DNA of 64,000 bases, from assembly GCA_017427385.1 (NCBI GenBank), contig JAFRSW010000004.1, positions 93,330 through 157,329 of the forward strand, read 5' to 3'. Positions 10,351-62,643 of this stretch are shown piece after piece. Position 1 is the stretch's first letter; every line of letters begins with the position of its first letter. Under the pieces are notes generated by a model. That model did not search any database and was not told where the DNA came from. It worked only from the letters and a program-made list of their open reading frames with translations. This DNA comes from Bacteroidales bacterium (GTDB lineage Bacteria > Bacteroidota > Bacteroidia > Bacteroidales > UBA932). A program made the position numbers and the translations under genes.

Positions 10351-10361
10351 TGTGAACAGAC

Positions 10362-11804: not shown

Positions 11805-11825
11805 AGGGCAGTTTACGATGATGTC

Positions 11826-12608: not shown

Positions 12609-12614
12609 TACGGA

Positions 12615-13847: not shown

Positions 13848-13848
13848 T

Positions 13849-17943: not shown

Positions 17944-17964
17944 TTATCAGTAAGTTATCCAAAA

Positions 17965-17990: not shown

Positions 17991-18030
17991 CTTTGCGTAA
18001 GTAATTGAAATTCAGCACACCAAGTTTTCT

Positions 18031-37626: not shown

Positions 37627-38124
37627 ATGAACGTAGAAGCACTCTTCAGGCAGTATTATCCCCGACTCCGGAATTACGCGTCCCGGTTTGTCGGAAATGC
37701 GTTCGTGGCCGACGATATCGTTCAGGAATGCTTTGTAAAACTTTACGAGCGCAGATTCCGGGTCAAAGATGTGTCGCCGGCCGCCCTACTGTTCGTGATG
37801 GTGCGCAATTCCTGCCTCAATTATGTCAAGCGCAAGGCTCTAGTTGAAACAGGCAATCCCTTCCTTGTAGCTGCGGATCTGACCCCGGAAGACGACCTTA
37901 TGTATGAAGAGCTTCGTCTGGAGATAAACAGGGTGATGGCGAAACTCCCTCCCAAATGCCGCGAGGTGTTCCAGATGAGCCGTTTCGAAGGGCTGAAGGT
38001 GCGGGAGATAGCGGACAGGACGAACACTTCCACCCAGAACGTGGAGAAGCATATCGCCCGTGCCCTGGAAGTGTTCTCGCGCCACTTTGCCGGGCTTGAC
38101 ATATCCGCAGGAGGTCTGGTCTGA
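37627..38124 (+). CDS. ECF RNA polymerase sigma factor (PUL regulator)
   Basis: A protein of 165 residues. Sigma region 2 reads ALFRQYYPRLRNYASRFVGN and ADDIVQECFVKLYERRF; region 4 reads LPPKCREVFQMSRFEGLKVREIADRTN with the helix-turn-helix TSTQNVEKHIARAL. The start is ATG 37627, close to its promoter. With the FecR-type protein and the STN-bearing SusC encoded next, it forms the usual Bacteroidetes trans-envelope relay, in which glycan arrival at SusC frees the sigma factor to transcribe the PUL. Confidence 0.96.
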   Translation: MNVEALFRQYYPRLRNYASRFVGNAFVADDIVQECFVKLYERRFRVKDVSPAALLFVMVRNSCLNYVKRKALVETGNPFLVAADLTPEDDLMYEELRLEINRVMAKLPPKCREVFQMSRFEGLKVREIADRTNTSTQNVEKHIARALEVFSRHFAGLDISAGGLV

Positions 38125-38214
38125 AAAAAAATAGAGATTTTTTCTTTTTCGAAGGTTGGTTTTTGACCGGCCTTTTTGTTTATAGTATGTATTTACGCGC
38201 ATAATACTAGAACA

Positions 38215-39177
38215 GTGACCGACTTTAAGCAAGCAGCCTTCGACTACTTTCGTGGAGAAATATCCCCGGAAAGGGAGCGTGAACTGTATGCATGGGTGAA
38301 ATCCTGCGACAGCAACCTGATGATTCTACACGGATGGGAGGAGGAATGGAAAACTTCTGAACAACCCGGATTAAACGACAAATGGACCCGCATTCTCGGG
38401 CGCGTGGCAGCCAGGGAGACCCTGGAAGAAGGTGTTATCCACACTAAAAGGAGAAATACATTCTGGTGGTATGCCGTTAGCGCAGCTGCAGCTGTGGCAA
38501 TCGTGCTGGTATTCGCTCTCCGCCCCACACCGATGCAACTTTATGCGATGGAAGCTCCTGCGGGTGAAAAATGCCGGGTATTCCTCCCGGACAGCTCGGT
38601 CGTATGGCTGAATTCCGGTTCGAGAATAAGTTTCGACGAATCTTTTAACGTCAAAAGCCGCAATGTAACTCTTGTGGGTGAAGGTTATTTTGATGTCACC
38701 CACAACGACAAGAAACCTTTCGTGGTTAACTGCGGCCAGGTCACCGTGCTGGTAAAGGGCACCAAGTTCAATGTTTCTGCGTACGAGGAAGACAGATTCG
38801 TTGAAACCAGCGTGACCGATGGACATGTGGTATTCTCTCACGGCCCGGCTCACCTGGACCTCTATAAAGGGCAGTCCGCCCGATTCGACATGCTTTCGCG
38901 CAGGTTCTCACGCTCGACCGAAGATCCCTCCGATGCTTCCGGATGGACCGAAAGCCGCTTCGTCTATAACAATATCAATCTCTCGGCACTCGCGGAGAAG
39001 CTTTCCCGCACGTATGCCGTGAAGTTCCATTTCAACACTACGGAGTATCTCGACAAGGAATTCAGTATTTCGCTCCGCAACAACGAAACTCTCCCCGAAG
39101 TCCTAAAGGCGCTGGAACAGATGATTCCGGTGCGCACCAGGATTGAGGGTCAGGACGTATATATCGACAAAAAGTAA
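38215..39177 (+). CDS. FecR-family anti-sigma factor
   Basis: A 320-residue inner-membrane protein. The start is GTG 38215, which gives MTDFKQAAFDYFRGEISPEREREL, the usual N-terminal sigma-binding beginning. One membrane helix (FWWYAVSAAAAVAIVLVFAL) lies at about 82-102. The periplasmic FecR domain has EAPAGEKCRVFLPDSSVVWLNSGS and GEGYFDVTHNDKKPFVV. The C-terminal DUF4974-like domain has YNNINLSALAEKLSRTY and LPEVLKALEQM. It probably contacts the STN domain of the SusC encoded downstream. Confidence 0.95.
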   Translation: MTDFKQAAFDYFRGEISPERERELYAWVKSCDSNLMILHGWEEEWKTSEQPGLNDKWTRILGRVAARETLEEGVIHTKRRNTFWWYAVSAAAAVAIVLVFALRPTPMQLYAMEAPAGEKCRVFLPDSSVVWLNSGSRISFDESFNVKSRNVTLVGEGYFDVTHNDKKPFVVNCGQVTVLVKGTKFNVSAYEEDRFVETSVTDGHVVFSHGPAHLDLYKGQSARFDMLSRRFSRSTEDPSDASGWTESRFVYNNINLSALAEKLSRTYAVKFHFNTTEYLDKEFSISLRNNETLPEVLKALEQMIPVRTRIEGQDVYIDKK

Positions 39178-39213
39178 CAAACCAATATATTTCAACCAAT
39201 AATTTAATCATTC

Positions 39214-42200
39214 ATGAAACTGCAACACAAAACAGGACTTATCGTTCTTCTGCTCTTGATTGTGAGTTTCGCTGCTGGCGCCCAGACGGTGACCGGCAAG
39301 TGGACTAACCAGAGCACGAAAACGGTTCTCAAGGAAATCGAGGCCCAGACCGGGCTCTCTATTTTCTATCGTTCCGACGAAGTGAATGAAAATGCCCAGG
39401 TGACGGCGGAGTTCAAGAACGCCCCCGTTGACAAGGCGCTTCAATCCCTTCTCGGGAAAGACATTGCGGTGACCATCAACGGAAAGATGATCGTTCTGTC
39501 CAAGAACGATGACAAAGGTGCCAAAGATGGCATAATCCGTGGCAAGGTCATTGATTCGACCGGCGAACCGGTTCCCGGTGCCGGCGTGTTCATTAAAGGA
39601 ACCACGAAAGGGGTTTCCACCGATCTGGACGGAAACTATTCCATCGCTGCCACCCCCGGGAACGTGCTGACGGTATCGTCTCTCGGCTATAAGGGGACAG
39701 AAGTGACGGTAGGACGTGCGTCGCTCATCAACATCACTCTTGAGAATGATAACGAGCTGCTGAGCGAATCCGTCGTGGTCGGTTACGGTACCACCAAGAA
39801 AGCCAACCTTACCGGTGCGGTGTCTGTTGTCAAAGCTGAGTCCATCAAGGACCGTTCCGCCCTTGATGTCGCCCATATGCTTCAGGGAACCGTGCCCGGC
39901 CTGAATGTCACATCCTCATCCGGCCGTCCCGGCCAGGCCGCTACGCTGAACATCCGAGGCTGGAACTCCATCAACGGAGGCAGCCCGCTGGTTCTGGTCG
40001 ACGGTGTCGAGGGAGACCTGCAGTACATCAACCCTGTCGATGTCGAGTCTGTATCCGTCATCAAGGATGCCGCCGCTGCGGCCATCTACGGTGCAAAGGG
40101 TTCCGCAGGTGTCATCCTGGTCACCACCAAGAGCGGCAGCAAGGAAAAGGGTGGCAAGGCTACCGTTACCTATAGCGGCCGCTACGGCTACACCGCCCCT
40201 ACCGCTTCCACCGACTGGGAAACCCGCGGTTATTACAGCGTTTACCTCAGCAACCTCTTCATGAAGGCATATAATGGTAGCAATCTCTACGACTATTCGG
40301 ACGCCGACATGCTGGAACTCTGGGCCCGCCGTAACGACAAGGTGGAGAATCCCGAGCGCCCCTGGGTGGTTATTACCCAGGACCAGAGCGGCAAGGACGT
40401 ATATAACTACTATGCCAACACCGACTGGTGGCATGTTCTCTACAAAGACAATAAACCCACCACCAGCCACACCATTACGGCCAGTGGCGCCACCGACAAT
40501 GTGAACTACCTCATCTCTGCCGGATATGTGTACGAGCAGGGTATGTTCAATATCAATCCGGACCACTACGATCGCTACAACCTGCGCGCAAAGGTGGGAT
40601 TCGATGTCAACAAGTGGCTCAAGATCGGCAACAACTTCAGCTATTTCAACAGTGCCTACTTCTATCCGGGCCGCGGAGGCATCAACAACTCCCTCTACGG
40701 CGCATCGGCGCATGCTCCGGCCAGTTTCCCGGCCTATAACCCCGACGGAACCGTGCTGTATGCCACGAAGTACAACAACAATACTATCATGGACGGTCTC
40801 ATGATGGCTCTCAACAACGGAGACAACAACACGGACCGAATCGACAACATCAGCAACACTTTCGATGTTACCATAACTCCTATGAAGGGCTTGACCATCA
40901 AGGGAGACTTTACTTATGCATTCAAGCTTGTCCGCTATACGAACCGCACCATGCCCGGAGAGTATTCGAAGGATCCCGGTGTCATCGTAACCCAGAGTTC
41001 AGGCGCCGCATTCGAGAATAAACTCTCCGAAACAGCAGATGTGCATAAATACAAGGCTGCGAACCTTTATGGAACATACGAGCACAGCTGGAATTCCGGT
41101 TTCAACTTGAAGGCTATGGCCGGTGTCAACTACGAAACCAAGCACATCAAGGATCTGGATGCCATCGGTTACGACCTGTACTCTTACGAACTGAACGACC
41201 TCAACCTCACGGGCGCCGATGCCGACGGCAACAAGCGCATGGAGGTGGCTGGCGGCCAGAACGAATACAAGACAGCCGGTTACTTCGCACGTATCAACTA
41301 CGACTACAAGGGCAGATACCTGCTTGAGACCAATGTCCGTTACGACGGTTCGTCCCGCTTCCTTCGCGGCAGCCGCTGGGTTTTGTCCCCGTCTGTCTCC
41401 CTGGGTTGGAGGATTAGCGAAGAGCCCTTCTTCCAGCCTCTCAAGAGTTGGTGGGACAATGCCAAGATCCGTGCTTCTTTCGGTCAGCTTGGCAACCAGC
41501 AGATGAGCGAGTACTATCCTTCCATCCGCACCATTTCCACAGGTTCCCAGTCCTCGTATCTGCTGGGCGGTCCCAAGCCCGCGCTCGCCAGCATTTCGGC
41601 TCCGGTATCATCCGGCCTTACATGGGAACGTTCCATCCAGAAGAACATTGGTGTTGACATGACCTTCCTGAAGGGACGCCTCGATCTTTCTGCCGAAGCT
41701 TATATCCGCGACACCAAAGACATGCTCACCGCCGGCGAGGTTCTCCCCGCCACCTACGGCTACAGCAGCGCTCCTAAGGAAAATGTCGCAGACCTCCGCA
41801 CTAAGGGTTGGGAATTCAACCTTGGATGGAAAGATTCATTCAAGCTTGCAGGCAAACCGTTCCATTACAATGTCAGCGTGCTGCTGAGTGACTATGTGTC
41901 TCACATCACCCGCTTCAACAACCCCGACAAACTCTTCGCAAAGAATTACTGGGAAGGCATGCGGTACGGCGACATCTGGGGTTACCATATTGTCGGTCTA
42001 TTCGCTTCGGATGAAGCTGCCGCCGACTGGATGTCCAAAGTGGACCAGTCCAAGGTGAACAGCATCATCAATGCAAGTACTGGCAACATCAACCCTGTCA
42101 CCGGCGCTCCCGGTGTACGTGCCGGCGACCTTCAGTTCGCAGATCTGGACGGCAACGGCAAGATCGACAAGGGCAATGAAAAGGTAGGTGACAGCGGTGA

Positions 42201-42744
42201 CTGGCAGGTCATAGGCAACAGCGAGCCTCGCTACAACTTCGGCGTCAACCTGGGAGCTTCCTGGGCTGGATTCGACCTGGCCGTGTTCTTCCAGGGAATC
42301 GGACATATGGACTGGTATCCTCAATATGAAGTGCGTCAGTTCTGGAGCCTCTACGCCCGTCCTTTCGCAACGTTCATTCCCCGGGACTTCCAGAATATGT
42401 ACTGGACCGAGGAGAACCCCAATGCCTACTTCCCGCGTCCCCGCGGATATGTGGCAGGCGTGAACACAAGCCGCGAGCTTTCTTCGACCAACGACCGTTA
42501 TCTGCAGAATATCGGCTACCTCCGTCTGAAGAACCTCACGGTCGGCTATACTCTTCCCGAAAAGATTACCCGCAAGGTTGGCATTGACCGCCTGCGCTTC
42601 TACTTCACGGGCGAAGATCTCTTTTACTGGGCACCCGGCCTTCACTGCGATTACATCGACCCTGAAATGGCCCAGACCAATGGCAACCTGCGCATTTATC
42701 CCTGGCAGAAGACCATTATGTTTGGTGTAGACATAACCCTTTAA
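39214..42744 (+). CDS. SusC-family TonB-dependent transporter with STN signalling domain
   Basis: A full-length outer-membrane transporter of 1176 residues. The signal peptide is cleaved near AAGAQ (23-24). An STN domain at about 26-96 (LKEIEAQTGLSIFYRSDEV) links it to the FecR anti-sigma factor. A carboxypeptidase-like beta domain follows at about 107-178 (IRGKVIDSTGEPVPGAGVFI), then the TonB plug at about 195-315 (LQGTVPGLNV, LNIRGWNSINGGSPLVLVDG, IKDAAAAAIYGAKGSAGVILVTTK) and the barrel, ending WQKTIMFGVDITL. It imports the oligosaccharide set of this PUL together with the SusD encoded 13 bases downstream. Confidence 0.98.
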   Translation: MKLQHKTGLIVLLLLIVSFAAGAQTVTGKWTNQSTKTVLKEIEAQTGLSIFYRSDEVNENAQVTAEFKNAPVDKALQSLLGKDIAVTINGKMIVLSKNDDKGAKDGIIRGKVIDSTGEPVPGAGVFIKGTTKGVSTDLDGNYSIAATPGNVLTVSSLGYKGTEVTVGRASLINITLENDNELLSESVVVGYGTTKKANLTGAVSVVKAESIKDRSALDVAHMLQGTVPGLNVTSSSGRPGQAATLNIRGWNSINGGSPLVLVDGVEGDLQYINPVDVESVSVIKDAAAAAIYGAKGSAGVILVTTKSGSKEKGGKATVTYSGRYGYTAPTASTDWETRGYYSVYLSNLFMKAYNGSNLYDYSDADMLELWARRNDKVENPERPWVVITQDQSGKDVYNYYANTDWWHVLYKDNKPTTSHTITASGATDNVNYLISAGYVYEQGMFNINPDHYDRYNLRAKVGFDVNKWLKIGNNFSYFNSAYFYPGRGGINNSLYGASAHAPASFPAYNPDGTVLYATKYNNNTIMDGLMMALNNGDNNTDRIDNISNTFDVTITPMKGLTIKGDFTYAFKLVRYTNRTMPGEYSKDPGVIVTQSSGAAFENKLSETADVHKYKAANLYGTYEHSWNSGFNLKAMAGVNYETKHIKDLDAIGYDLYSYELNDLNLTGADADGNKRMEVAGGQNEYKTAGYFARINYDYKGRYLLETNVRYDGSSRFLRGSRWVLSPSVSLGWRISEEPFFQPLKSWWDNAKIRASFGQLGNQQMSEYYPSIRTISTGSQSSYLLGGPKPALASISAPVSSGLTWERSIQKNIGVDMTFLKGRLDLSAEAYIRDTKDMLTAGEVLPATYGYSSAPKENVADLRTKGWEFNLGWKDSFKLAGKPFHYNVSVLLSDYVSHITRFNNPDKLFAKNYWEGMRYGDIWGYHIVGLFASDEAAADWMSKVDQSKVNSIINASTGNINPVTGAPGVRAGDLQFADLDGNGKIDKGNEKVGDSGDWQVIGNSEPRYNFGVNLGASWAGFDLAVFFQGIGHMDWYPQYEVRQFWSLYARPFATFIPRDFQNMYWTEENPNAYFPRPRGYVAGVNTSRELSSTNDRYLQNIGYLRLKNLTVGYTLPEKITRKVGIDRLRFYFTGEDLFYWAPGLHCDYIDPEMAQTNGNLRIYPWQKTIMFGVDITL

Positions 42745-42757
42745 TTGAATGTGCCTT

Positions 42758-44542
42758 ATGAAAAAGATAGCATATATCCTGCTTCCCATCCTGGCCGGTT
42801 TTGTATTTGCCGGTTGTGACGATTTACTGGACGCAGTTCCCAAGGACCGCATGTCCCCGGACACCTTCTTCAAGACAGAGAAAGAGCTTCAGGCTTTCAG
42901 CATGAACCTTTATACCATGCTGCCCGGAGCCGGTTCTCTCTTTATGGAAGATTCCGACACTTATATCCAGATGGGTCTTACCGATGAACTGAAAGGCACC
43001 CGTCAGGTGCCCGCATCCGGCAGTGGCTGGAGCTGGGGAGACCTGCGCAACGCGAACACCATGTTGGATTATCTTCCCAACTGTCCCGATGCCGCAGTGC
43101 GGGCGAAGTATGAGGGTTTGGCCCGATTCTTCCGCGCGTACTTCTATTTTACCAAGGTAAAGCGTTTCGGCGATGTGCCGTGGTACGATAAACCTGTGGG
43201 TTCGGCCGATACCGATGCCCTCAACCGCCCGCGCGATTCTCGCGAATTCATCCTCGGCAAGATGATTGAAGACATTGATTTCGCAATCGAGAACCTGCCT
43301 TCCACCAAGAGCGCATACGAGATCACCAAGTGGACCGCCATGGCCCTCAAATCCCGTTTCTTGCTGTTCGAAGGCACCTTCCGCAAGTACCACACCGAGT
43401 TCGATTACGGTACCGGTGCCCACGACTGGAAATGGTATCTCGACGAGTGCGCCGCAGTGTCGGAAGAGTTCATGGCCAACAGCGGTTACACACTGCACAC
43501 GGCTGGCGGAGCCAACAAGGCCTATTACGCCCTGTTCACCACGCCTAACGCTACCGACAATATGGACGAGGTTATCCTTGCTAGGGATTACAATGTGGCC
43601 TACAGCATTACCCATAGTGCCAATAACACCATGCAGTCTGCCACCATGGGTCGTCACGGTATGACCCGCAAGCTGGTGGCAAGCTACCTGATGGCCGACG
43701 GTACCCGTTTCACCGACAAGGCCGGCTGGGAAACCATGGACTTTATGACGGAGACCCAGAATCGCGATCCCCGTCTTGCCCAGAGCATCCGTACACCCGG
43801 TTACACCCGCGTTGGAGACAATACCCCCTGCCCGCCGAACTTTGTGTTCTGCCTCACCGGATACCATCCCATTAAGTATGTTATGGAAGCCGACAAGGAC
43901 ATATACAATGGTTCGGATGTGGACCTCATCATCATGCGCGCCGCTGAAGTTCTTTTGAATTTCGCCGAAGCGAAGGCAGAGGCTGCCACCCTTACCCAGA
44001 CGGATCTCGACAAGAGTATCAACCGTCTCCGCGATCGTGTTGGAATGCCTCATCTCAATATGGCCACCGCCAATGCCAACCCTGATCCTTATCTTACCAA
44101 TGCGGAATGGGGTGGTTATCAGAATGTGACTGGCGCCAACAAGGGCGTAATTCTGGAAATCCGCCGCGAACGTGCCGTGGAGCTGGCCCAGGAGGGCTTC
44201 CGCTACTACGATATCATCCGTTGGAAAGAAGGCAAGATTTTCGAGAAGCAATACTACGGAATGTATTTCCCCGGTGCCGGAGAGTATGACCTCAATGGCG
44301 ACAGCATTCCCGATGTGCTGCTCTATACCGGTGACAGCGCTCCTGCAAGCACCGCTCCCGCCCAGTACAAAGTCGGCAGCTCCGACTTCATCCTGAGCAA
44401 CGGCACATCCGGCAACGTCAACCCTTACAAGGGATTGGCCTGCAAGTGGAACGACGCCCGCGACTACCTGTATCCCCTTCCTACCGACGAGATCAAACTC
44501 ACCGGCGGCATTCTTACCCAGAATCCCGGATGGGGAGACTAG
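42758..44542 (+). CDS. SusD/RagB-family glycan-binding lipoprotein
   Basis: A protein of 594 residues. ATG 42758 is chosen over ATG 42749 because it gives a clean lipoprotein signal (MKKIAYILLPILAGFVFAGC, Cys at 20). The RagB/SusD features are LLDAVPKDRMSPDTFFKTEKELQAF, RFFRAYFYFTKVKRFGDVPWYDKP, RAAEVLLNFAEAKAEA, LEIRRERAVELAQEGFRYYDIIRWKEG and the terminal YLYPLPTDEIKL. It is the partner of the preceding SusC. Confidence 0.98.
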   Translation: MKKIAYILLPILAGFVFAGCDDLLDAVPKDRMSPDTFFKTEKELQAFSMNLYTMLPGAGSLFMEDSDTYIQMGLTDELKGTRQVPASGSGWSWGDLRNANTMLDYLPNCPDAAVRAKYEGLARFFRAYFYFTKVKRFGDVPWYDKPVGSADTDALNRPRDSREFILGKMIEDIDFAIENLPSTKSAYEITKWTAMALKSRFLLFEGTFRKYHTEFDYGTGAHDWKWYLDECAAVSEEFMANSGYTLHTAGGANKAYYALFTTPNATDNMDEVILARDYNVAYSITHSANNTMQSATMGRHGMTRKLVASYLMADGTRFTDKAGWETMDFMTETQNRDPRLAQSIRTPGYTRVGDNTPCPPNFVFCLTGYHPIKYVMEADKDIYNGSDVDLIIMRAAEVLLNFAEAKAEAATLTQTDLDKSINRLRDRVGMPHLNMATANANPDPYLTNAEWGGYQNVTGANKGVILEIRRERAVELAQEGFRYYDIIRWKEGKIFEKQYYGMYFPGAGEYDLNGDSIPDVLLYTGDSAPASTAPAQYKVGSSDFILSNGTSGNVNPYKGLACKWNDARDYLYPLPTDEIKLTGGILTQNPGWGD

Positions 44543-44569
44543 CTTTAACTTTCTAACATGGAATTATAT

Positions 44570-46291: not shown

Positions 46292-46306
46292 TAAACACGC
46301 TCAGGT

Positions 46307-48271: not shown

Positions 48272-48274
48272 AGA

Positions 48275-49318: not shown

Positions 49319-49321
49319 AGG

Positions 49322-50101
49322 ATGAGAATACGACTATTCCTGATACTTGCCATCGCAGGGGTTGTCTTTTCGACAGCCTCCTGCGGCGACAAGGAGGGTC
49401 CGACCAATGATATTTCGCCGGAACAGAAGGACCCGACTGCTGCCCACAGCGGCCCTAAAGCAGTTTTTATCGGAGACAGCATTACCTGGCAGTGGGGCTT
49501 GGTCAACCGCACGTTGAAAGAGAGCCAGCAGGTAATTATTTCCACCAATCCTATGCCCGCCTGGATGAGTATCTCCGGCAACAGCGTGGTCATTACCTGG
49601 CATGCTTCTTTCTTCACTAAGAATGACTATGTAGACAAGGGTGTCAGCGCCGAAAATACAACCCAGATGCTGGAACGCTACCAGAAGGATGTGCTTTCGC
49701 AGGATCCCTGGTGCGTAGTAATCATGGGAGGCACCAACGACCTCGCCCAGGGCGTGTCCAAGGAAGCCATACTGAAGAATATATCTTCCATGGCCGAGCA
49801 GGCTGCCGCAAAGAACATGGAGGTGATTCTGTGCTCTGTGACACCCTGCAATGATGCATACTCACGCCTGTCGGCTCCAAATACCAAGGGAGATCATATT
49901 TTACGGCTGAACAACATGATCAAGGCGTATGCGGCCGAGAAGGGCTTTACCTATTGCGATTATCATCCCGCACTCGTGGCCGCTGATGGCCTGGCCCTGA
50001 AAGAGGCCTACTGGCTCTATGACCACCTGCATCCCAACCCGGACGCCTACACCGTGATGGAAGGAATAATCAAGCCGATAATCGATAGCCTGATTAAATG
50101 A
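49322..50101 (+). CDS. SGNH/GDSL hydrolase lipoprotein
   Basis: A 259-residue secreted esterase, lipoprotein Cys at 21 (STASC). The SGNH blocks are AVFIGDSITWQWG (Ser about 58), WMSISGNSVV, VIMGGTNDLAQG and YDHLHPNPDAY (Asp and His of the triad). It is of the small carbohydrate-esterase/lysophospholipase type, likely to deacylate the target glycan. It overlaps the next gene by 4 bases (ATGA). Confidence 0.9.
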   Translation: MRIRLFLILAIAGVVFSTASCGDKEGPTNDISPEQKDPTAAHSGPKAVFIGDSITWQWGLVNRTLKESQQVIISTNPMPAWMSISGNSVVITWHASFFTKNDYVDKGVSAENTTQMLERYQKDVLSQDPWCVVIMGGTNDLAQGVSKEAILKNISSMAEQAAAKNMEVILCSVTPCNDAYSRLSAPNTKGDHILRLNNMIKAYAAEKGFTYCDYHPALVAADGLALKEAYWLYDHLHPNPDAYTVMEGIIKPIIDSLIK

Positions 50102-52284
50102 AACTGTCCCGCATAACGACCCTGTTCCTGCTGCTTGTATGCAGCCTGCACCTGTCCGCCAATCCTAAACCGGGTAACGGCTGGACGGTCACGCCCATAG
50201 CCGAGGGCATCACTTATTATACCTTCTCCGGCATCGACGAAGTTTCCGGGGTGGCGCAGCAGGTGTTCGTGGTCGACCTGGACCTGTGCAATCCCAAGTA
50301 TGCGTTCAGGTTCACGTATTCCGATCCCCTGGCCATCACCTCGGACGTATTCGCCCGCAACAACGCCATTGTGGCGATGAACGCCACCTATGAGCCTACT
50401 TCCGTAGCGATCAAAGTGAACGGGACAATGTACCACAATATGGCCAAGAATACGGTCTTCGATGAGCCTGTGCCCAATTGGAAGAGCGAGGCGGCCATCT
50501 GCACCGACGGATTCCGGGATGTACGGATCTCCTTCGACGGCAAGGGCAAAAGCATCAAGGAACAGCGGGCATTCTACGCTTCCATGCCGGATCTGAACAT
50601 CTTCACCAGCTCTCCCATGCTTGTGGATGATTTCGACCCTGTCGGAGCCCGTTTTGTGGATCCCTCCCTTACTTCGGAAGACCTGAAGCAGCTGCATTAT
50701 GAGAGTCCGGCCCGCCATCAGGGCGTCCGGCACCCCCGCTCTGCCGTTGCCAAGACGCAGGACGATCATCTGATCCTTCTTGCGGTGGATGGCCGCAGGG
50801 CCGGGATAGGCGAAGGTATGACCGCAAAGGAGCTCACCCTCTTCCTGGTCAAGTGGTTTAACCCGCAGTATGCCCTGAACATGGACGGCGGCGGATCTAC
50901 TTCCATGGCCGTCCGCGGCCAGGGAGACCCTAACACCCACATAGTCAACTATCCTACCGACAACAAGCGGAAGTACGACCATGCCGGCGAGCGTTCTGTT
51001 CCTACCCACTTCATCATCGTGGAGCTTCCCCAGACACAGGAGGAGCCTTCTAAAGTGCGGGAGAACATACGCGAAGAAATACGCTCCAATCCGGCTCTTG
51101 CAAACGGTGAAGACCTTGTCTATGACCTGAAACCCAAAGCTTCCGCAAAGGCACCGAAGGGCTACGAGCCCATCTTCATCGAGCACTACGGACGCCATGG
51201 ATCCCGTTATGCATATACAGCTAAAACCTATACCCTTCCCCTTGAGATGCTTCGCGCCGGCGCCAAGTCGGGCAATCTGACCGCGTACGGCGAGAAGCTC
51301 TACAAGGAACTGGATGCCTTCTGGCAGAAGGCCCAGTATCAGGTCGGGGACCTCACGCCCCTCGGGTGGAAACAGCACTCGGAAATCGCCCGCACCATGG
51401 TGAAATCCTTCCCCGGTGCATTCGGAAAGGGCAGCAGCGTAGATGCCTGCTCTTCCGCTTCGGTGCGTTCCATCCTGAGTATGTCCGCAGCCTGCACCAG
51501 CATCGCCCGCGAGGCGCCCAAGGCTGATGTGTACGAACATCAGGGCACCCTGGACATCCAGGCCACCCGCCCAAACATGGGAAAGAATCCCTTCCGCTAC
51601 AAGGGCCCCGATACCATGTTCCCCTACCGGGAGAGCCCCGAGCAGTTCTTTACCCGCCGCTTCAAGGGCGTGAACGACGTGCTCGGCCGTCTGTTCAAGG
51701 ATCCCGTGGAGGGCCTTGGCAAGCGCAACGCCTACGAAACCTTCTTCTACCTCTATATGTTCGTTGCCGGCATGAACAGCCTGCCGGAAGAGGAACGCAT
51801 GGACGTGGGTGGAATCTTCACCTCGGAAGAGTTCGCAACTATTTGGGAAATAGATAATTACGAGCGCTACCGCGAGTACCTGCCCTATCGCACGTCCTGC
51901 TGCTCGATAGTGGACGACATGATTGCCAAGGCAGATGAGCGCCTGGTCTCCCGCAAACGCGGAGCCGACCTCCGTTTCGGCCACGACCACGTGGTGCTTT
52001 CGCTGCTGATGATAATGGATCTGGAAGGTTTCGGATTCATGCCCGCCAAGGCAGATGACCTGGCAAAGTCGTTCCAGAGTTTCCGTTCCCCCATGGCCGC
52101 AAACATACAGTTCGTGTTCTATGCACCCAAGAAGGGCAAAGCCGGAGACGTACTGGTGAAAGTGCTGCTGAACGGCGAAGAAGCCTCGCTTGGCAGCCTT
52201 AAGCCGGTCGATGGACCATATTATGAATGGACTGCTGTTAAAGATTATCTTGCAAAGCGCACATCGTTGTTCGTAACGCGGTAA
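50098..52284 (+). CDS. Fusion of phosphodiester glycosidase (NAGPA) and histidine phosphatase
   Basis: A 728-residue exported protein with a signal peptide (TTLFLLLVCSLHLSANPKP). Residues of about 25-312 are a NAGPA domain very similar to the protein at 48275 (AIVAMNATYEP, HPRSAVAKTQDDHLILLAVDGR, LFLVKWFNPQYALNMDGGGSTSMAV at about 249-272, GERSVPTHFIIVEL). After a charged linker, residues of about 355-728 form a histidine acid phosphatase of the MINPP/phytase type: EHYGRHGSRYAY with the catalytic RHGSR at 366-370, and LRFGHDHVV with the catalytic His-Asp at 629-630. One polypeptide would thus open a sugar phosphodiester and then take off the exposed phosphate. I know of no described protein with this pairing, but I could not search. 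Confidence 0.88.
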   Translation: MKLSRITTLFLLLVCSLHLSANPKPGNGWTVTPIAEGITYYTFSGIDEVSGVAQQVFVVDLDLCNPKYAFRFTYSDPLAITSDVFARNNAIVAMNATYEPTSVAIKVNGTMYHNMAKNTVFDEPVPNWKSEAAICTDGFRDVRISFDGKGKSIKEQRAFYASMPDLNIFTSSPMLVDDFDPVGARFVDPSLTSEDLKQLHYESPARHQGVRHPRSAVAKTQDDHLILLAVDGRRAGIGEGMTAKELTLFLVKWFNPQYALNMDGGGSTSMAVRGQGDPNTHIVNYPTDNKRKYDHAGERSVPTHFIIVELPQTQEEPSKVRENIREEIRSNPALANGEDLVYDLKPKASAKAPKGYEPIFIEHYGRHGSRYAYTAKTYTLPLEMLRAGAKSGNLTAYGEKLYKELDAFWQKAQYQVGDLTPLGWKQHSEIARTMVKSFPGAFGKGSSVDACSSASVRSILSMSAACTSIAREAPKADVYEHQGTLDIQATRPNMGKNPFRYKGPDTMFPYRESPEQFFTRRFKGVNDVLGRLFKDPVEGLGKRNAYETFFYLYMFVAGMNSLPEEERMDVGGIFTSEEFATIWEIDNYERYREYLPYRTSCCSIVDDMIAKADERLVSRKRGADLRFGHDHVVLSLLMIMDLEGFGFMPAKADDLAKSFQSFRSPMAANIQFVFYAPKKGKAGDVLVKVLLNGEEASLGSLKPVDGPYYEWTAVKDYLAKRTSLFVTR

Positions 52285-52328
52285 TTCCCGGATTTATTGC
52301 GTATCTTTAACAAAAATTTCGCGCAGAT

Positions 52329-54656
52329 ATGTTCAGGAAACCGTTTTTGCTATTATTGATTCCGGCGTTATGCCTTTGCACGCCAAGTAGGAATAATGAT
52401 CCGTCTCCCATTTCCGAATGGCAGGCAGAGTGGATAGGCGCGCCATGGGAGGGGGATGATTTCGTCCCCGAGGCGGAACATCCTACCCCGGAATTCGCAA
52501 AAACCATCAGCCTGGATTCCAGGCCGGAGAGTGCCACAATGTACATCTGCGGCCTCGGAATGTTCGAGGCTGCCATCAATGGCAATCGCGTCGGGGAAGA
52601 CTACTACGTGCCAAACAACACCATGTACGGCCATCGCCAGCCCGGCTATGTGTACAACATAAAGGTCTTCGACGAGCACTTCAAGAACTTCCGGGTGATG
52701 TATCTGGCCTACGACGTCACCGACCTCCTCAAGAAAGGCGAAAACACCATAGGGGTAACCCTGGGCAACGGCTGGTATGCCGGCTGGCGCAAGGGGAACG
52801 TCTCTCCATTCGGCACCCCGAGACTGCTCTGCCAGATAGAGCTAAAGATGAAGGATGGCAGCACGCAGACCATCTGCACCGATCCAACCTGGCAGGTTTG
52901 CAAGAGCCCCATCCTCTATAATAACATCTATAGCGGAGAAGCCTATGATGCCCGCCTGGAGGCCACCAAGGAGTGGCAACCGGCCATCGTCCGCAAGGCC
53001 CCGGAGGGCGCACTCGAGCTGCAGCAAGGCCTTGCAGACCGAATCATGGAGGTTCTTGAGCCTAAGAGCATCACCAGGCAGGAAGACGGCTCCTACGAAG
53101 TGGACTTCGGCGACTACATCACCGGCCGCGTGCATCTCTATGGCATCAAGGCTCCCGAGGGCACTGAGATCGAACTCCTGCACCCTATCGATCCGGAAGA
53201 CTCCGGCAATAACTGGGTTAAACGCTCCTGGAATGGGGATTACAAATACATCTGCAAGGGCTCCGGAAGCGAAAGCTACGCCCCTTCCTTCAACTGGTAC
53301 AGCTTCCGCAAGGTGGTGGTGAAGGGATGGCCGGGCGAACTCAAGGCGAAGAACCTGCGCGCGGAGGCTATCTATACCGACATCCGCACCACCGGTCGCT
53401 TCGAGTGCTCCAACCCCCTGATTAACAGGGTGAACCACCTCTTCTGGCGCACCCAGACGGATAACATGCATATGGGAGTGGCCTCCGACTGCCCCCACCG
53501 CGAGAAGGGCGCCTACACCGGCGACGGCCAGGTGGCCTGTGTGGCTGTGATGGAGAACTTCGACGCCGACAAATTCTACCGCAAGTGGCTCCGGGACATG
53601 GCCGACTGCCAGGATACCCTGAGCGGATATGTGCCCAACACCGCCCCCTTCCATCCTGGATGCGGCGGCGGAGTGGCCTGGGGCGCAGCCATCAATATCA
53701 TCCCCTGGGAACATTACCGCCATTATGCAGATAAGTCGGTGCTGGAGGAGCACTACGATGCCATGCAGAAGCAGTTCGCCTTCATGGAGAGCTGGCGTAC
53801 GGAAGAAGGCATCATGAACATGCAGATGCCCCGCGGTGCGGAGAAACCCCAGTACTGGATGAACCTGGGCGACTGGTGCCCGGCCTACAATCTTCCGGAG
53901 GACCGCCTGGTTCACACCTACTTCCTCTGGAAGTGCGCCCGCTTCATGGCCTGTGCCGCATCCGTGCTCGGCAAGACGGATGATGCCGCCCGTTACGATG
54001 CGCTGGCGCAGGATGTCTGGACCGCCTTCCACAAAGTGTTCTTCAATCCCGAAACCGCCTCCTATGGCGACAACAACGGCTCCAACGTATTTGCCCTCCA
54101 TATGGGCGTGCCGGAAGAAAACCGGGAGGCAGTCGTGGAGACACTTCGTAAAGAGATAGAGGCCAACGGCGGCCACATCAACACCGGCATTTTCGGCACC
54201 CAGATATTCTTCGACGTGCTCTGCGACAACGGCCTGTCCGAACTCGCATACCAGGTGCTTACGCAGAAGGAATGCCCCGGCTACGGCTGGTGGGTGGAGC
54301 AGGGCGCCGACACCATGTGGGAATACTGGGACGGCAAGAAATCCCGCAATCATCCCATGTTCGGAGGGGGCCTCACATGGCTCTACACCCGCGTGGCGGG
54401 CCTGCGCATCGACGACAGCGAACCCGGCTACAAGCACATGATTGTGCGCCCCACCCCCATGGGAGACCTCAGCTGGGCATCCTACGAGACCGAAACCCCT
54501 CAGGGCAGGGCGGCCGTCCGCTGGGACATCCGCGGAGGCAGGTTCATCCTCAAAGTCACCGTGTCAGAAGGTTCGCACGCTACGGTCTACCTCCCCGGCT
54601 CCAACGAGGGTATAGAGGCTGGCCCGGGCAAACACCGCTTTACTGAAAAATTCTAA
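52329..54656 (+). CDS. GH78 alpha-L-rhamnosidase
   Basis: A protein of 775 residues with a lipoprotein-type signal (Cys at 17, LCLC). It follows the bacterial rhamnosidase plan: N-terminal beta domains (ATMYICGLGMFEAAINGNRVGEDYY, NTIGVTLGNGWYAG), Bac_rhamnosidase linker (TGRFECSNPLINRVNHLFWRTQTDNM), then the (alpha/alpha)6 barrel with DCPHREKGAYTGDGQVA, NLGDWCPAYNLPEDRLV and WEYWDGKKSRNHPMFGG, and the C-terminal beta domain (HMIVRPTPMGDLSWASYETETPQG). It would release terminal alpha-L-rhamnose. It lies 44 bases after the fusion gene and 3 before the GH20 fusion. Confidence 0.95.
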   Translation: MFRKPFLLLLIPALCLCTPSRNNDPSPISEWQAEWIGAPWEGDDFVPEAEHPTPEFAKTISLDSRPESATMYICGLGMFEAAINGNRVGEDYYVPNNTMYGHRQPGYVYNIKVFDEHFKNFRVMYLAYDVTDLLKKGENTIGVTLGNGWYAGWRKGNVSPFGTPRLLCQIELKMKDGSTQTICTDPTWQVCKSPILYNNIYSGEAYDARLEATKEWQPAIVRKAPEGALELQQGLADRIMEVLEPKSITRQEDGSYEVDFGDYITGRVHLYGIKAPEGTEIELLHPIDPEDSGNNWVKRSWNGDYKYICKGSGSESYAPSFNWYSFRKVVVKGWPGELKAKNLRAEAIYTDIRTTGRFECSNPLINRVNHLFWRTQTDNMHMGVASDCPHREKGAYTGDGQVACVAVMENFDADKFYRKWLRDMADCQDTLSGYVPNTAPFHPGCGGGVAWGAAINIIPWEHYRHYADKSVLEEHYDAMQKQFAFMESWRTEEGIMNMQMPRGAEKPQYWMNLGDWCPAYNLPEDRLVHTYFLWKCARFMACAASVLGKTDDAARYDALAQDVWTAFHKVFFNPETASYGDNNGSNVFALHMGVPEENREAVVETLRKEIEANGGHINTGIFGTQIFFDVLCDNGLSELAYQVLTQKECPGYGWWVEQGADTMWEYWDGKKSRNHPMFGGGLTWLYTRVAGLRIDDSEPGYKHMIVRPTPMGDLSWASYETETPQGRAAVRWDIRGGRFILKVTVSEGSHATVYLPGSNEGIEAGPGKHRFTEKF

Positions 54657-54659
54657 ACT

Positions 54660-57284
54660 ATGACCATACTGTTCTCTCTGCTTCTGCTGATTACCACCGT
54701 CACTGGTGGCAGCACTCCCGATTGCATAATCCCTAAAGTGGCGTCCTACACCACCGCCACAGGGAAAAGCGCCGGAAGCATAACGCTAGATAAAGAAAAG
54801 GATTTTGCCCTTTCCGACGCCGACCTGGCGGCCATCAAGTTCAAGATCGGCCCCAAGGAACTGAAGGGCAAACCCGATGGCGCCTACACGCTCATCATCA
54901 ACAAAAAGGGGATAAGCGTATCCGCCGCCGGCGAGGCCGGAAAGTTCTATGCCCTGCAGTCTCTCATCCAGATGCGAAACGCCGATCCGGAGGGCCGCGT
55001 GGCCTTCTGCCGCATCGACGACGCACCGCGCTTCCGCCACCGCGGGCTGATGTTTGATCTGGTGCGCCACTTCCAGAGTAAGGACTTTATCCTCAAGCAG
55101 ATAGATGCCATGGCCCTGGTAAAGATGAGCCGCCTGCAGCTGCATCTTACCGACAACGAGGCCTGGCGCGTCAAGCTGGACTGCGCCCCGGAAATGGCCT
55201 CCGTCGCTGCCTTCGGCGATGCCTGGTTCTTCCACAATTTCTTGTCCGGAAAGGCCCAGAAATACGGCAGCGAACCTGCCGGATATGTGCATGGCACCGT
55301 CTATGACGACGGACATGTCTACGGCGGCTATCTCACCAAGGATGACCTTCGGGAAATCGTCGCGTATGCGGCGGAACGCCAGATAGAGGTTATCCCCGAA
55401 ATCGAGCTTCCCGGCCACAACAGGGTGCTGCTGAGCGTGCATCCGGAATACTACTGCGACGGCAAACACCCGGCCAACAACGTTATCTGCGCTGGACGCG
55501 AGGATGTCTTCGCTTTCTTCGAGAAGGTGCTGGAAGAGGTGATGGAAATCTTCCCTTCGAAGTATATCCACATAGGTGGAGACGAGGCCTCCAAAGCCAA
55601 CTGGGTGCTCTGCAGCCGCTGCAAACAGAGGATGGCCGCTGAGGGCCTGAAGGATGAATTCGAGCTGCAGAGCTACATCATCCGCCGCGCTGAGAAGTTC
55701 ATCAACGCACATGGCAAGCGCCTGATAGGCTGGGACGAGATACTGGAAGGCGGCCTTTCCGAGAATGCCACCGTCATGAGCTGGCGCGGGGTCGCCGGAG
55801 GCATCAAGGCCAACAGCATGGGGCACGACGTCATCATGACCCCCAATACCTATTATTATCTGGATTATGGCCAGGACGCCCCCTACAAGGAGCCCATGGC
55901 GTTCAGGCCCTATCTTGCCATAGAATCCGTCTACAACTACGACCCGGAAGAGGGAATCAGCTCGCTGGAGCATCTGCTGGGCGTGCAGGGCAACCTCTGG
56001 GGAGAATGCGTGCTCGAGCCCTGGCACTTCGAATACATGCTCTATCCCCGCGCTTTCGCGGTTGCCGAAACCGGATGGAGCCCTGCCGGCAGCAAGGATT
56101 ACGCATCCTTCCGCGAACGCGCGATCGCGCTGGGTAAGTGGCTGAAAGACAGGGACTACACCCTATTCAACCTTGAGACCGAGGTCGGCGACCGTCCTGA
56201 GGCCGCCGTGGAAATTCCCCGCATTACCCAGAAAGCCAAGGCCGGCATCAGCATAGACAACGGCGCTTCCCGGGATGCATCCATCCTTGTGGACGGTCGC
56301 CTTGGCGGATGGAACGTGGCCGACAGGAAGGTATGGAACGAGGTGCGCGGCAAGAGCGTTACGATTGATATAGACCTGGGAGAAAAGTACAACATTAGCT
56401 ACCTGGGCGCCGAGTTCGCAGACTATAACCTGCGCCGCATCCGCATGCCGGAAGACGTGCAGTTTTCGGTTTCTTCCGATGGTAAGAACTATACTCCGGT
56501 GAGCGTTCCGCAGCCCAGGCTGCATCCGGAGCGCACTCATTTCCAGATAATTACTGTTGGCGGAACCGTCGAATTGAAAGCTGTGAAATACGTGCGGCTG
56601 ACCTACAATACCGGCAAGAGAAAGGTTACCGTGGACATCAGCGAGGTGATTATCAACGGCCGGCCCCGTAACGAAAACCGGGAGAAGGACTGGGCGAATT
56701 TCTCCCGTTATTCCGAAGACAACAAGAAAGTGAAAAACAGGCCGGTAGCCGTTCTGTTCGGCGATTCCATCACTCAGAACTGGGCCAAATTCGATAACCA
56801 GTGGCTGCGGGACCATGGATTCATAGGCCGAGGCATCAGCGGGCAGACTACCAGCGAGATGCTGGTGCGCTTCCGCTCCGATGTAATTGAGTTGCAGCCC
56901 GAATATGTGGCAATCCTGGCGGGCATCAACGACATCGCCCACAACAACGGCATCATCAAGGTGGAGAATATCTTCAAGAACCTGGTGTCGATGGTGGAAC
57001 TTGCAAAGCTTCACGGCATCAAACCCATTATGTGCACCCTTGTGCCCGCTAAAGAGATAGGCTGGTACAAGCAGGTGGGCGATCCCCGTCCGGCAATTGA
57101 CAGCCTGAACACCCTCATCCGCAGCTATGCCCTGGCCAACGGCATCCCTCTGGCAGATTATCATACCGCCCTTAAGACTGAAGATGGTGCTCTCAGGCCG
57201 GAATACGCCGGCGATGCCGTGCATCCCAATGTCGCCGGCACTAAGGTGATGGAAGAAGTGTTACTGAAATTGATGGATAATTAA
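54660..57284 (+). CDS. GH20 beta-N-acetylhexosaminidase with discoidin-like and SGNH esterase domains
   Basis: An 874-residue secreted three-part protein. Residues of about 20-120 are the GH20b domain, and about 125-500 the GH20 barrel with FRHRGLMFDLVRHFQ, HLTDNEAWRVKLD, HIGGDEASKANW (Asp-Glu pair about 307-308) and IGWDEILEGGLSENATVMSWRG. About 520-670 look like a discoidin/F5-8 type carbohydrate-binding module (DGRLGGWNVADRKVW, VTIDIDLGEKYNISYLGAEF). The rest is an SGNH esterase (AVLFGDSITQNW, Ser about 702; LAGINDIAHN; GDAVHPNVAG). It would take beta-HexNAc and acyl groups from the same glycan. The GH20 and SGNH catalytic residues are all present. Confidence 0.92.
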   Translation: MTILFSLLLLITTVTGGSTPDCIIPKVASYTTATGKSAGSITLDKEKDFALSDADLAAIKFKIGPKELKGKPDGAYTLIINKKGISVSAAGEAGKFYALQSLIQMRNADPEGRVAFCRIDDAPRFRHRGLMFDLVRHFQSKDFILKQIDAMALVKMSRLQLHLTDNEAWRVKLDCAPEMASVAAFGDAWFFHNFLSGKAQKYGSEPAGYVHGTVYDDGHVYGGYLTKDDLREIVAYAAERQIEVIPEIELPGHNRVLLSVHPEYYCDGKHPANNVICAGREDVFAFFEKVLEEVMEIFPSKYIHIGGDEASKANWVLCSRCKQRMAAEGLKDEFELQSYIIRRAEKFINAHGKRLIGWDEILEGGLSENATVMSWRGVAGGIKANSMGHDVIMTPNTYYYLDYGQDAPYKEPMAFRPYLAIESVYNYDPEEGISSLEHLLGVQGNLWGECVLEPWHFEYMLYPRAFAVAETGWSPAGSKDYASFRERAIALGKWLKDRDYTLFNLETEVGDRPEAAVEIPRITQKAKAGISIDNGASRDASILVDGRLGGWNVADRKVWNEVRGKSVTIDIDLGEKYNISYLGAEFADYNLRRIRMPEDVQFSVSSDGKNYTPVSVPQPRLHPERTHFQIITVGGTVELKAVKYVRLTYNTGKRKVTVDISEVIINGRPRNENREKDWANFSRYSEDNKKVKNRPVAVLFGDSITQNWAKFDNQWLRDHGFIGRGISGQTTSEMLVRFRSDVIELQPEYVAILAGINDIAHNNGIIKVENIFKNLVSMVELAKLHGIKPIMCTLVPAKEIGWYKQVGDPRPAIDSLNTLIRSYALANGIPLADYHTALKTEDGALRPEYAGDAVHPNVAGTKVMEEVLLKLMDN

Positions 57285-57313
57285 TATATTTGCATACTAT
57301 ACATTAACCAATT

Positions 57314-58707
57314 ATGAGTTTTTTTGATTTCTTCAAAGCCAGTGGTCCTGCGGCGGTGAAAGTGCCGGAAGAAAAGGTCGATAAGACCTACAAGCGCCTG
57401 CGCTTCCAGGCTTTCATGGCCGGCACCTTCGGCTATGCCCTTTATTATGTATGCCGCCTCTCGATGGGCGTGATGAAGCAGCCGCTCATTGATGCGGGCC
57501 TGCTCAACGCCACCCAGCTGGGTATCATCGGCGCGTGCCTCTACTGGGCGTATGCCATCGGTAAACTGATAAACGGCTTCCTGGCCGACAGTTCCAACAT
57601 CAAGCGTTTCATGGCCGCCGGCCTCGTGGTGTCCGTTCTCATGAACTTCACCATGGGCATCCTCGGCGTTACCGCCCTCAAGGGAGGCATCGCCAACTCG
57701 GCCCTGTTCGTGCTGTTCGCCTGCTGCTGGGCCGTGAACGGATGGAGCCAGAGCATGGGAGCCCCGCCTGCAATCATCGCGCTCTCGCGCTGGTATCCGC
57801 TCCGCATACGAGGCACATACTACGGCTTCTTCAGCTCATCCCATAATATAGGAGAAGGCCTGTCATTCGTGTTCGTGGGTATGCTGGTGGCCACCTCGGA
57901 TGGAAGTGGGGCTTTTTTGGCGCAGCCCTCGCAGGCGTGCTGGGCATCCTCATCATCATCTTCTTCCTGCACGATTCCACCGAGGCAAAAGGACTTCCTC
58001 CTGTGGAGGTACTGGCCGGTGAGGCGGAGCAGAAGGATGATATGACGCCCGAGCAGAAGCGTGCTCAGACCAAGCGCATGCAGGCCGCCGTGGTCAAGAA
58101 CCCCGGCGTGTGGATCCTTGCAATCGCGAGCGCCTTCATGTACATGAGCCGCTACGCCATCAACGAGTGGGGCACCATCTTCCTGCAGGAGGCCAAGGGC
58201 TACGACCTGGCCGGCGCTGCCACCATCATCGGCATCAATCCTATCTTCGGCATCATAGGTACGGTGGTTTCCGGATGGCTGTCCGATGCCGTGTTCAAGG
58301 GCGACCGTAAGTATCCTGCATTCGTGGCCGGTATAATCGAGGCTATCGCGCTGGCGCTGTTCCTGTTCGGAGGTGCTTCCAAGTGGATCAACGTGCTGGC
58401 GATGGTGCTGTTCGGCGTAGCCATCGGCGTACTGATCAGCTTCCTCGGAGGCCTCATGGCGGTGGATCTCGTTCCCCGTCAGGCAACCGGTGCCGCCCTT
58501 GGTATCGTGGGTATGGCATCCTACGCCGCAGCTGGTCTGCAGAACGTGATCACCGGTCTGCTGCTGGACGGACACATCGTGGAAGGCGCAAACGGAGTCA
58601 TGGTTCACGACTATACCTATGTGAGCTGGTTCTGGCTCGGAGCCGCCATTATTTCCTTCATGCTGCCGGTACTCAACTGGCGCCGTAAACAACAGGTAAT
58701 AGAATGA
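57314..58707 (+). pseudogene. Organophosphate:phosphate antiporter (GlpT/UhpT type), broken by a 1-base deletion
   Basis: Two overlapping frames together spell one MFS transporter of about 464 residues. The first half (57314 to about 57897) has FGYALYYVCRLSMGVMKQPLID, AYAIGKLINGFLAD, NGWSQSMGAPPAIIALSRWY and GTYYGFFSSSHNIGEG, characteristic of the OPA family that imports glycerol-3-phosphate or hexose phosphates in exchange for phosphate. At about 57897 the frame is lost. In the frame that starts at 57898 the expected GWKWGFFGAALAGVLGILIIIFFLHD follows and runs to the stop at 58707. One base missing between 57896 and 57899 explains this. It could be an assembly error, a recent inactivation, or strain variation; there is no slippery heptamer to suggest programmed shifting. 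Confidence 0.87.
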
Positions 58708-62641: not shown

Positions 62642-62643
62642 AT

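What the first reader, a model, noticed from the sequence alone, without database searches (positions are those of the whole stretch)
37627..58707. A PUL equipped to take apart a phosphodiester-linked, rhamnose- and HexNAc-containing glycan
One sigma/anti-sigma/SusC/SusD unit is followed on the same strand by a NAGPA-type phosphodiester glycosidase, an SGNH esterase, a NAGPA-histidine phosphatase fusion, a GH78 rhamnosidase, a GH20-discoidin-SGNH fusion and an OPA-type organophosphate antiporter. Family knowledge gives a consistent order: deacylate, open the phosphodiester, remove phosphate, release rhamnose and HexNAc, import a phosphorylated product. Rhamnose + beta-GlcNAc + phosphodiester (for example glycerol phosphate) is the make-up of rhamnose-rich wall polysaccharides of streptococci and relatives, so feeding on Gram-positive wall glycan is a specific hypothesis. 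Yeast phosphomannan or other phosphorylated capsules are alternatives.
Basis: partly seen in the sequence, partly recalled or inferred. Interest (0 to 1): 0.85.

Follow-up and report, generated by a model that had tools for sequence, protein, structure and literature searches.

The report
Gut bacterium's phosphate-uncapping sugar-eating operon
A sugar-eating gene cluster of a gut (probably rumen) bacterium is built around a two-headed enzyme that seems to strip sugar caps and then phosphates from phosphate-linked glycans, probably mannose-rich ones rather than the bacterial wall polymer first proposed.

Summary
The gene inventory is right. Window 37627-58707 is one co-directional PUL: sigma, FecR, SusC, SusD, two probable surface-binding proteins, NAGPA, SGNH, a NAGPA-histidine acid phosphatase (HAP) fusion, GH78, GH20-SGNH and an OPA-type transporter split over two frames.

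The rhamnose/HexNAc inference is not the conserved core. Beside 11 other NAGPA-HAP fusions GH78 was never found (flanks vary) and a same-strand GH20 once. Three relatives with orthologous PULs have no detected L-rhamnose isomerase. Three small PULs hold EEP, SusC, SusD and HAP-NAGPA without glycosidases. The pairing recurs in both domain orders, on HAPs that reject a single clade: a sign of coupled steps, uncap then dephosphorylate.

Neighbours in relatives hint at mannose: two carry two GH92, a UhgbMP-like GH130 and a mannose-6-phosphate isomerase beside the PUL, and four related genomes fuse NAGPA to GH92.

Best reading: a PUL for glycosyl-phosphodiester glycans, most likely phosphomannose type. 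The Gram-positive wall idea is demoted, not excluded: this genome has rhamnosidases in two such PULs. No activity is shown; the substrate is inference.

The parts
36750..37583 (-). EEP-family (PF03372) lipoprotein, probable phosphatase/phosphodiesterase; divergent neighbour of the sigma gene; ORF open to 37628
   Evidence: Pfam E 2e-10; 42-44% homologues lie directly beside the NAGPA/HAP fusion in G266, G263, G292 and L077, and a 37% one beside the SusCD of the fusion in G212; lipobox FTSC
37627..38124 (+). ECF sigma factor (ORF open from 37606)
   Evidence: Sigma70_r2 and r4_2
38176..39177 (+). FecR-type anti-sigma factor
   Evidence: PF04773 5e-16
39214..42744 (+). SusC-type TonB-dependent transporter (STN domain just under its cut-off)
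   Evidence: TIGR04056 863 bits; homologues at 67-82% in relatives
42749..44542 (+). SusD-type surface binding lipoprotein
   Evidence: PF07980 2e-45; lipobox FAGC
44558..46291 (+). protein with BT_3987-like N-terminal domain, probable surface glycan-binding protein (SGBP1)
   Evidence: PF08522 2e-15; N-terminal cysteine present, but not matched by the lipobox pattern
46307..48271 (+). second probable surface glycan-binding lipoprotein with GLUG-like repeats (SGBP2)
   Evidence: weak GLUG (E 0.025), homologues in the same place in relatives, lipobox LASC
48275..49318 (+). NAGPA phosphodiester glycosidase, lipoprotein
   Evidence: PF09992 7e-21; HPR, VDGR, DGGG invariant in 16 of 16 rows; lipobox LNGC
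49322..50101 (+). SGNH/GDSL esterase, lipoprotein
   Evidence: PF13472 4e-24; lipobox TASC
50098..52284 (+). bifunctional NAGPA phosphodiester glycosidase - histidine acid phosphatase, no lipobox
   Evidence: PF09992 1e-21; HAP half E 6e-44 to 7r5y; motifs invariant
52329..54656 (+). GH78 alpha-L-rhamnosidase (accessory; seen beside a NAGPA-HAP fusion only here)
   Evidence: PF17389 5e-81; not found beside 11 other NAGPA-HAP fusions
54660..57284 (+). GH20 beta-hexosaminidase with weak discoidin and C-terminal SGNH esterase (accessory)
   Evidence: PF00728 3.5e-98, PF13472 2.7e-22; PDB 6q63 E 2e-99
57314..58707 (+). OPA/GlpT-type organophosphate:phosphate antiporter, split over two frames
   Evidence: 1pw4 E 4e-21 and 2.5e-23; open-frame homologues of 459-464 aa beside the fusion in G195, G084, L075, L076, L077

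Best explanation
This is a PUL for glycans carrying sugar-1-phosphate diesters, built round an 'uncap, then dephosphorylate' step. Proposed course: SusD and the two binding proteins capture the glycan. The lipoproteins NAGPA, SGNH esterase and EEP trim caps, acyl groups and phosphates at the surface. SusC imports the pieces. In the periplasm the fusion removes a sugar from the phosphodiester, leaving a phosphomonoester, which its HAP half hydrolyses. Accessory glycosidases (here GH78 and GH20-SGNH; in relatives GH92 and GH130) take the rest. The OPA antiporter, where intact, would import leftover sugar phosphate against phosphate. The most likely substrate class is phosphomannose-type glycan (fungal or protozoal phosphomannan or phosphorylated N-glycans), in which the bacterial NAGPA would perform the mannose-6-phosphate uncovering reaction of its human homologue. 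Shown: genes, motifs, domain fusions, conservation, neighbourhoods. Inferred: every activity, location, order and substrate. I put about 0.65 on 'glycosyl-phosphodiester glycan' and about 0.35 on phosphomannose specifically.
For: The NAGPA profile finds solved N-acetylglucosamine-1-phosphodiester alpha-N-acetylglucosaminidases (6pki, E 1e-13) and 3ohg (9e-23) with the same motifs aligned. HAP half close to solved acid phosphatases. The pairing occurs as NAGPA-HAP in 12 and HAP-NAGPA in 13 distinct ORFs; three more C20-type HAP-NAGPA ORFs lie in G084, G195, G207. One clade of fused HAPs is rejected (AU p 2.8e-7; 0.003 without the C20 row), while 24 of 25 fused NAGPA domains form one clade (98/99), so HAP partners were probably exchanged. 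Small PULs with EEP, SusC, SusD and HAP-NAGPA and no glycosidase between them in G282, G298, G212 (G282 has further SusC/SusD genes). Mannose: G195 has OPA, phosphoglycerate mutase, GH130, two GH92 and mannose-6-phosphate isomerase (TIGR00218, 137 bits against 116) within 12 kb after the fusion; G084 has two GH92, isomerase and GH130 within 8 kb before SusC. The GH130 of G195 matches UHGB_MP at E 4e-178. GH92-NAGPA single ORFs: confirmed by Pfam in G212 and G298, and by two matches in one open frame in G282 and G129. The GlpT-like pieces carry the aligned R, H and R positions (role of these residues recalled).
Against: No GH92, GH130 or mannose isomerase in the window's own PUL; the GH92 most like this set in its genome (57%, C11) has neither GH130 nor isomerase within the 16.6 kb fetched round it, though the draft is only 78% complete. 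In 16 genomes the excess of GH92 near NAGPA comes from the fusions of four related genomes (4 of 68 within 5 kb, 1.6 expected). In G266, G263 and G292 the GH92/GH130 set is on the fusion's contig but about 14-62 kb away. Two NAGPA/HAP PULs of this genome hold rhamnosidases. The closest SusC relative (L071, 82%) shows none of GH78, GH20, GH92, GH130 or OPA in its 22 kb. The 16 comparison genomes were picked from the top, so the NAGPA-HAP linkage count (26 of 68 within 2 kb, 1.0 expected) is biased.
Confidence: 0.5

Rival explanations
1. One reading: feeding on rhamnose-rich wall polysaccharides of streptococci and relatives, rhamnose by GH78, GlcNAc by GH20, glycerol phosphate by the phosphodiester enzymes.
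For: GH78 and GH20 in the operon; GH106 in the second NAGPA/HAP PUL of the same genome, with a 45% match to part of it in the corresponding G207 locus; L-rhamnose isomerase in the genome; 5 of 68 NAGPA matches within 5 kb of GH78/GH106 when the window's genome is included (1.7 expected).
Against: GH78 found beside 0 of 11 other NAGPA-HAP fusions; no enrichment of rhamnosidases near NAGPA outside this genome (2 of 61 within 10 kb, 2.5 expected); G207, G195, G084 with orthologous PULs have no RhaA match. NAGPA chemistry needs an anomeric phosphodiester, which GroP-6-GlcNAc is not (recalled).
Confidence: 0.12
2. The substrate is a polymer of sugar-1-phosphate units (capsule or teichoic-type). The fusion peels it from the end: NAGPA half frees a sugar, HAP half frees the phosphate, and so on, which needs no glycoside hydrolase.
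For: The small PULs of G282, G298, G212 and the C20-type PUL of G195 have no glycosidase between their genes; fusion in both domain orders suits two activities that must alternate.
Against: GH92/GH130/isomerase neighbours in relatives; glycosidases may be supplied by other loci, and not every flanking gene was scanned. No polymer was tested.
Confidence: 0.2
3. A phytate or inositol-phosphate uptake system: HAP is an inositol polyphosphate phosphatase and the OPA imports a phosphate ester.
For: HAP half is similar to solved multiple inositol polyphosphate phosphatases (E 2e-26); the EEP superfamily includes inositol phosphatases (recalled).
Against: The best match is a different acid phosphatase (6e-44); the motif is HD in 16 of 16 rows, while MINPP has HAE (recalled); phytate has no glycosidic phosphodiester for two NAGPA domains.
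Confidence: 0.08

Closest known systems
Human mannose-6-phosphate uncovering enzyme (NAGPA) and bacterial DUF2233 protein 3ohg
   Same: PF09992 domain; aligned R (of HPR), VDG and DGGGS motifs
   Different: Here in a SusCD operon and fused to a histidine acid phosphatase; activity untested
B. thetaiotaomicron alpha-mannan PULs with GH92 and an EEP mannosyl-6-phosphatase (4c1r; PUL details and organism recalled)
   Same: SusCD and an EEP lipoprotein (4c1r is the best but weak PDB match of the L077 EEP, E 0.003); GH92 and GH130 adjoin in two relatives
   Different: No GH92, GH76 or GH38 in the window's PUL; NAGPA-HAP fusion; the window's own EEP found no PDB match up to E 0.1
Histidine acid phosphatases / MINPP (7r5y, 4fdt)
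   Same: Full-length similarity of the C-terminal half, RHGxR and HD motifs
   Different: Fused to a phosphodiester glycosidase; HD where MINPP has HAE (recalled)
GlpT/UhpT organophosphate:phosphate antiporters
   Same: Similarity to GlpT over both pieces
   Different: Under every OPA-type NCBIfam cut-off even in the intact G195 relative; reading frame broken in the window

Membership tests
SusCD polysaccharide utilization locus | adjacent SusC and SusD genes with regulator and degradative enzymes on one strand | tested here: met
PF09992 NAGPA phosphodiester glycosidase | score over curated cut-off and conserved motifs | tested here: met
   75.7 and 78 bits against 25; 23 invariant columns in 16 rows, among them HPR, VDGR, DGGG
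PF09992 NAGPA phosphodiester glycosidase | hydrolysis of a glycosyl-1-phosphodiester | not testable with these tools
   needs an enzyme assay
Histidine phosphatase branch 2 | score over Pfam His_Phos_2 cut-off | tested here: not met
   15.2 bits against 23.6
Histidine phosphatase branch 2 | RHGxR and HD/HAE catalytic motifs (recalled as defining), similarity to solved members | tested here: met
   16 of 16 rows; E 6e-44
MINPP | HAE proton-donor motif (recalled) | tested here: not met
   HD in all 16 rows
OPA antiporter | similarity to GlpT with both substrate arginines (role recalled) | tested here: met
   alignments
OPA antiporter | one open reading frame | tested here: not met
   two frames, 57314-58045 and 57937-58707; open in relatives
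   GH78 beside 0 of 11 other NAGPA-HAP fusions (some flanks are short)
Phosphomannan / phosphorylated N-glycan PUL | alpha-mannosidase genes within the locus | tested here: not met
   none in the window's PUL; present beside the orthologous PULs of G195 and G084

The most novel reading that the evidence does not exclude
Gut Bacteroidales have evolved a dedicated family of bifunctional 'uncover-and-dephosphorylate' enzymes, formed more than once and in both domain orders, that acts as the catalytic core of glycosidase-poor PULs and lets them peel sugar-1-phosphate-linked glycans by alternating glycosidase and phosphatase cuts: a bacterial feeding use of the mannose-6-phosphate uncovering reaction.
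Probability: 0.3. Interest if true: 0.8.

Novelty: new variant of a known kind. Interest (0 to 1): 0.6.

Why it matters
PULs are mostly classed by their glycosidases, and phosphate-linked glycans are poorly covered (my own knowledge). A recurrent glycosidase-phosphatase fusion with its own SusCD would give a marker for phosphoglycan feeding, a possible tool enzyme for uncapping and dephosphorylating mannose-6-phosphate glycans, and a testable link between gut bacteria and fungal, protozoal or bacterial phosphoglycans. I found nothing on it in the held library with ten searches, of which I saw the listings only; one search was swamped by unrelated words. Most subscription journals are not held, so this is weak evidence of absence.

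Tried and rejected
Rhamnosidase co-occurrence as a family rule: rejected outside the window's genome. GH20 co-occurrence with NAGPA: rejected (0 of 61 outside own genome within 10 kb); GH20 does lie within 2 kb of HAP genes more than expected (6 of 93, 0.7 expected), at other loci. A fusion outside the genus: none seen in samples of 393 genomes of the order and 395 of the phylum, where the matches cover the HAP half, apart from the window's genome and one NAGPA-region match (G687); at most two candidates per genome were scored there, and three, so fusions could be missed. EEP near the cytolethal-distending-toxin subunit family (23.6 bits against cut-off 189): shared superfamily only, not taken as evidence. 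Structure: the model of the fusion has mean pLDDT 57, HAP half mostly 55-95, NAGPA half mostly under 50; not used for conclusions. Papers on DUF2233, mannan PULs, the uncovering enzyme and UhgbMP are not held (nothing read). SusD matches to solved structures are too distant to hint at the glycan (best E 1.7e-16).
Full report
What is there. The window is the right end of contig C3 of a 1.93 Mb draft, 78% complete. Small gaps and a 4-base overlap of SGNH and fusion fit one operon. The transporter is in two frames; homologues beside the fusion in G195, G084, L075, L076 and L077 are open over 459-464 aa.

Are the enzymes plausible? The NAGPA profile finds 3ohg and solved N-acetylglucosamine-1-phosphodiester glycosidases, with R, VDG and DGGGS aligned; HPR, VDGR and DGGG are invariant in 16 of 16 rows. 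The HAP half resembles 7r5y (E 6e-44) and MINPP structures (2e-26) and keeps RHGxR and HD in 16 of 16 rows, although it is under Pfam's His_Phos_2 cut-off. A simple lipobox pattern hits EEP, SusD, SGBP2, NAGPA and SGNH, but not SGBP1, the fusion, GH78 or GH20-SGNH, so surface and periplasmic stages are a reasonable inference.

Relatives. A scan of GTDB genomes with the fusion gave 20 loci, of which 10 (L070-L079) hold fusions over nearly the whole query; five of those ten titles name ruminant stomach compartments (goat abomasum, buffalo reticulum twice, yak rumen, yak omasum). L072 and L078 have the contig lengths of G195:C9 and G084:C8 and are counted once. Architecture was read by HMM on the loci held by then: 12 distinct NAGPA-HAP and 13 distinct HAP-NAGPA ORFs with near-complete HAP domains, the latter including one in the window's own genome (C20). 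C20-type HAP-NAGPA ORFs also occur in G084, G195 and G207.

Fusion history. In a 42-row HAP tree, fused HAPs fall in three places. Holding all fused HAPs as one clade is rejected (p 2.8e-7), also without the C20 row (p 0.003), and so is one clade of the NAGPA-HAP order (p 0.005). In the 44-row NAGPA tree 24 fused domains form one clade (98/99), with the C20 one elsewhere (which warns of long branches). Simplest reading: repeated fusion and partner exchange. One fusion with many losses is not strictly excluded, and the rows were gathered by similarity to the window's protein. Outside the genus no fusion was seen in 393 order and 395 phylum genomes (at most two candidates scored per genome).

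Core and accessories. tblastn of window proteins against the loci: SusC, SusD, both binding proteins, NAGPA and a fusion are conserved in G207, G195, G084, G266, G263 and L071, and from SGBP1 on in L077; G266 and G263 have the HAP-NAGPA order. SGNH was found in all of these but G207 and G263. Beside the other 11 NAGPA-HAP fusions (G207, G195, G084, L070, L071, L073-L077, L079), GH78 was found 0 times and a same-strand GH20 once (L075, 53%); L076 has a 36% GH20 on the other strand, beyond the cyclophilin gene. Flanks vary and L070, L073 and L079 are short. OPA lies within 2.5 kb in six of the 11 (G195, G084, L074, L075, L076, L077; in L074 cut by the contig end). L073 and L079 carry a C4-dicarboxylate-type transporter there. 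L071, the nearest by SusC (82%), goes straight from fusion to cyclophilin. EEP homologues adjoin the fusion in G266, G263, G292 and L077, and stand beside the SusCD of the fusion in G212; EEP genes also sit by the SusCD of G282 and G298. The last three are the small PULs without glycosidases between their genes; G282 has extra SusC/SusD genes. The C20 PUL of the window's genome has GH106 (partial, 57 bits against 29), GH3, MFS, a BadF-like gene (under cut-off), HAP, NAGPA and HAP-NAGPA. G195 and G084 keep its SusCD, NAGPA and HAP-NAGPA with no match to GH106 or GH3 there; G084 has a 25% GH78 match about 15 kb off on the other strand, and G207 a 45% match to part of the GH106 protein.

Test of the rhamnose idea. 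In 16 genomes, of 61 NAGPA matches outside the window's genome 2 lie within 10 kb of GH78 or GH106 (2.5 expected) and 0 of GH20 (1.6 expected). With the window's genome included, 5 of 68 lie within 5 kb of a rhamnosidase (1.7 expected). G207, G195 and G084 have no RhaA match; 13 of 16 genomes, the window's included, have one. So rhamnose looks like a local addition, though twice over in this genome.

The mannose lead. G195 has OPA, phosphoglycerate mutase, GH130, two GH92 and a mannose-6-phosphate isomerase after the fusion; G084 has two GH92, isomerase and GH130 before SusC. The GH130 of G195 matches UHGB_MP at 4e-178; that this enzyme works on N-glycan mannosides is recalled. G266, G263 and G292 carry GH92 and GH130 of the same kinds on the fusion's contig, about 14-62 kb off. 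Four related genomes join GH92 and NAGPA in one open frame (Pfam-confirmed in G212 and G298), beside an outer-membrane barrel protein and a BACON protein in those two. The NAGPA of the window genome's C20 fusion is the query that matches them best (42-43%). By GH92 proximity alone the excess is small and comes from these four genomes. I take this as the better substrate lead, not proof.

Mechanism. The glycosidase half would leave exactly the phosphomonoester that the phosphatase half removes; this explains the repeated fusion in either order. Free phosphate and sugar, or sugar phosphate via OPA, would follow. Everything beyond sequence is inference.

Noticed in passing
window 1-19440: Another SusC (cut)/SusD locus with three EEP-family genes (5131-6348, 7577-8611, 11826-12608), a GH28, an MFS 46% like that of the C20 PUL, and a ROK-family gene.
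   Followed up: partly
L107:10487-13525 and L108:9260-12217: Single ORFs joining GH92 and NAGPA, beside an outer-membrane barrel protein and a BACON protein (two further genomes).
   Followed up: partly
window 60980-62746: Second GH20 on the minus strand, 35% like the PUL's GH20; a GH20 match of 36% also lies near the cyclophilin gene in L076 and L046.
   Followed up: no
L110, L111, L112: GH20 and HAP genes 1-2 kb apart in three genomes; six of 93 HAP matches have GH20 within 2 kb (0.7 expected).
   Followed up: partly
L046:3843-6806: ORF with two different histidine-phosphatase-like regions in a row.
   Followed up: no
L107:1619-3553: Glucosamine-6-phosphate isomerase domain fused to a PIG-L deacetylase domain, next to a second isomerase-domain gene.
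   Followed up: no
window 33041-35284: Protein with repeats like those of the PUL's second binding protein (29-38%), separated from the PUL by a minus-strand flippase-like gene and the EEP gene.
   Followed up: no
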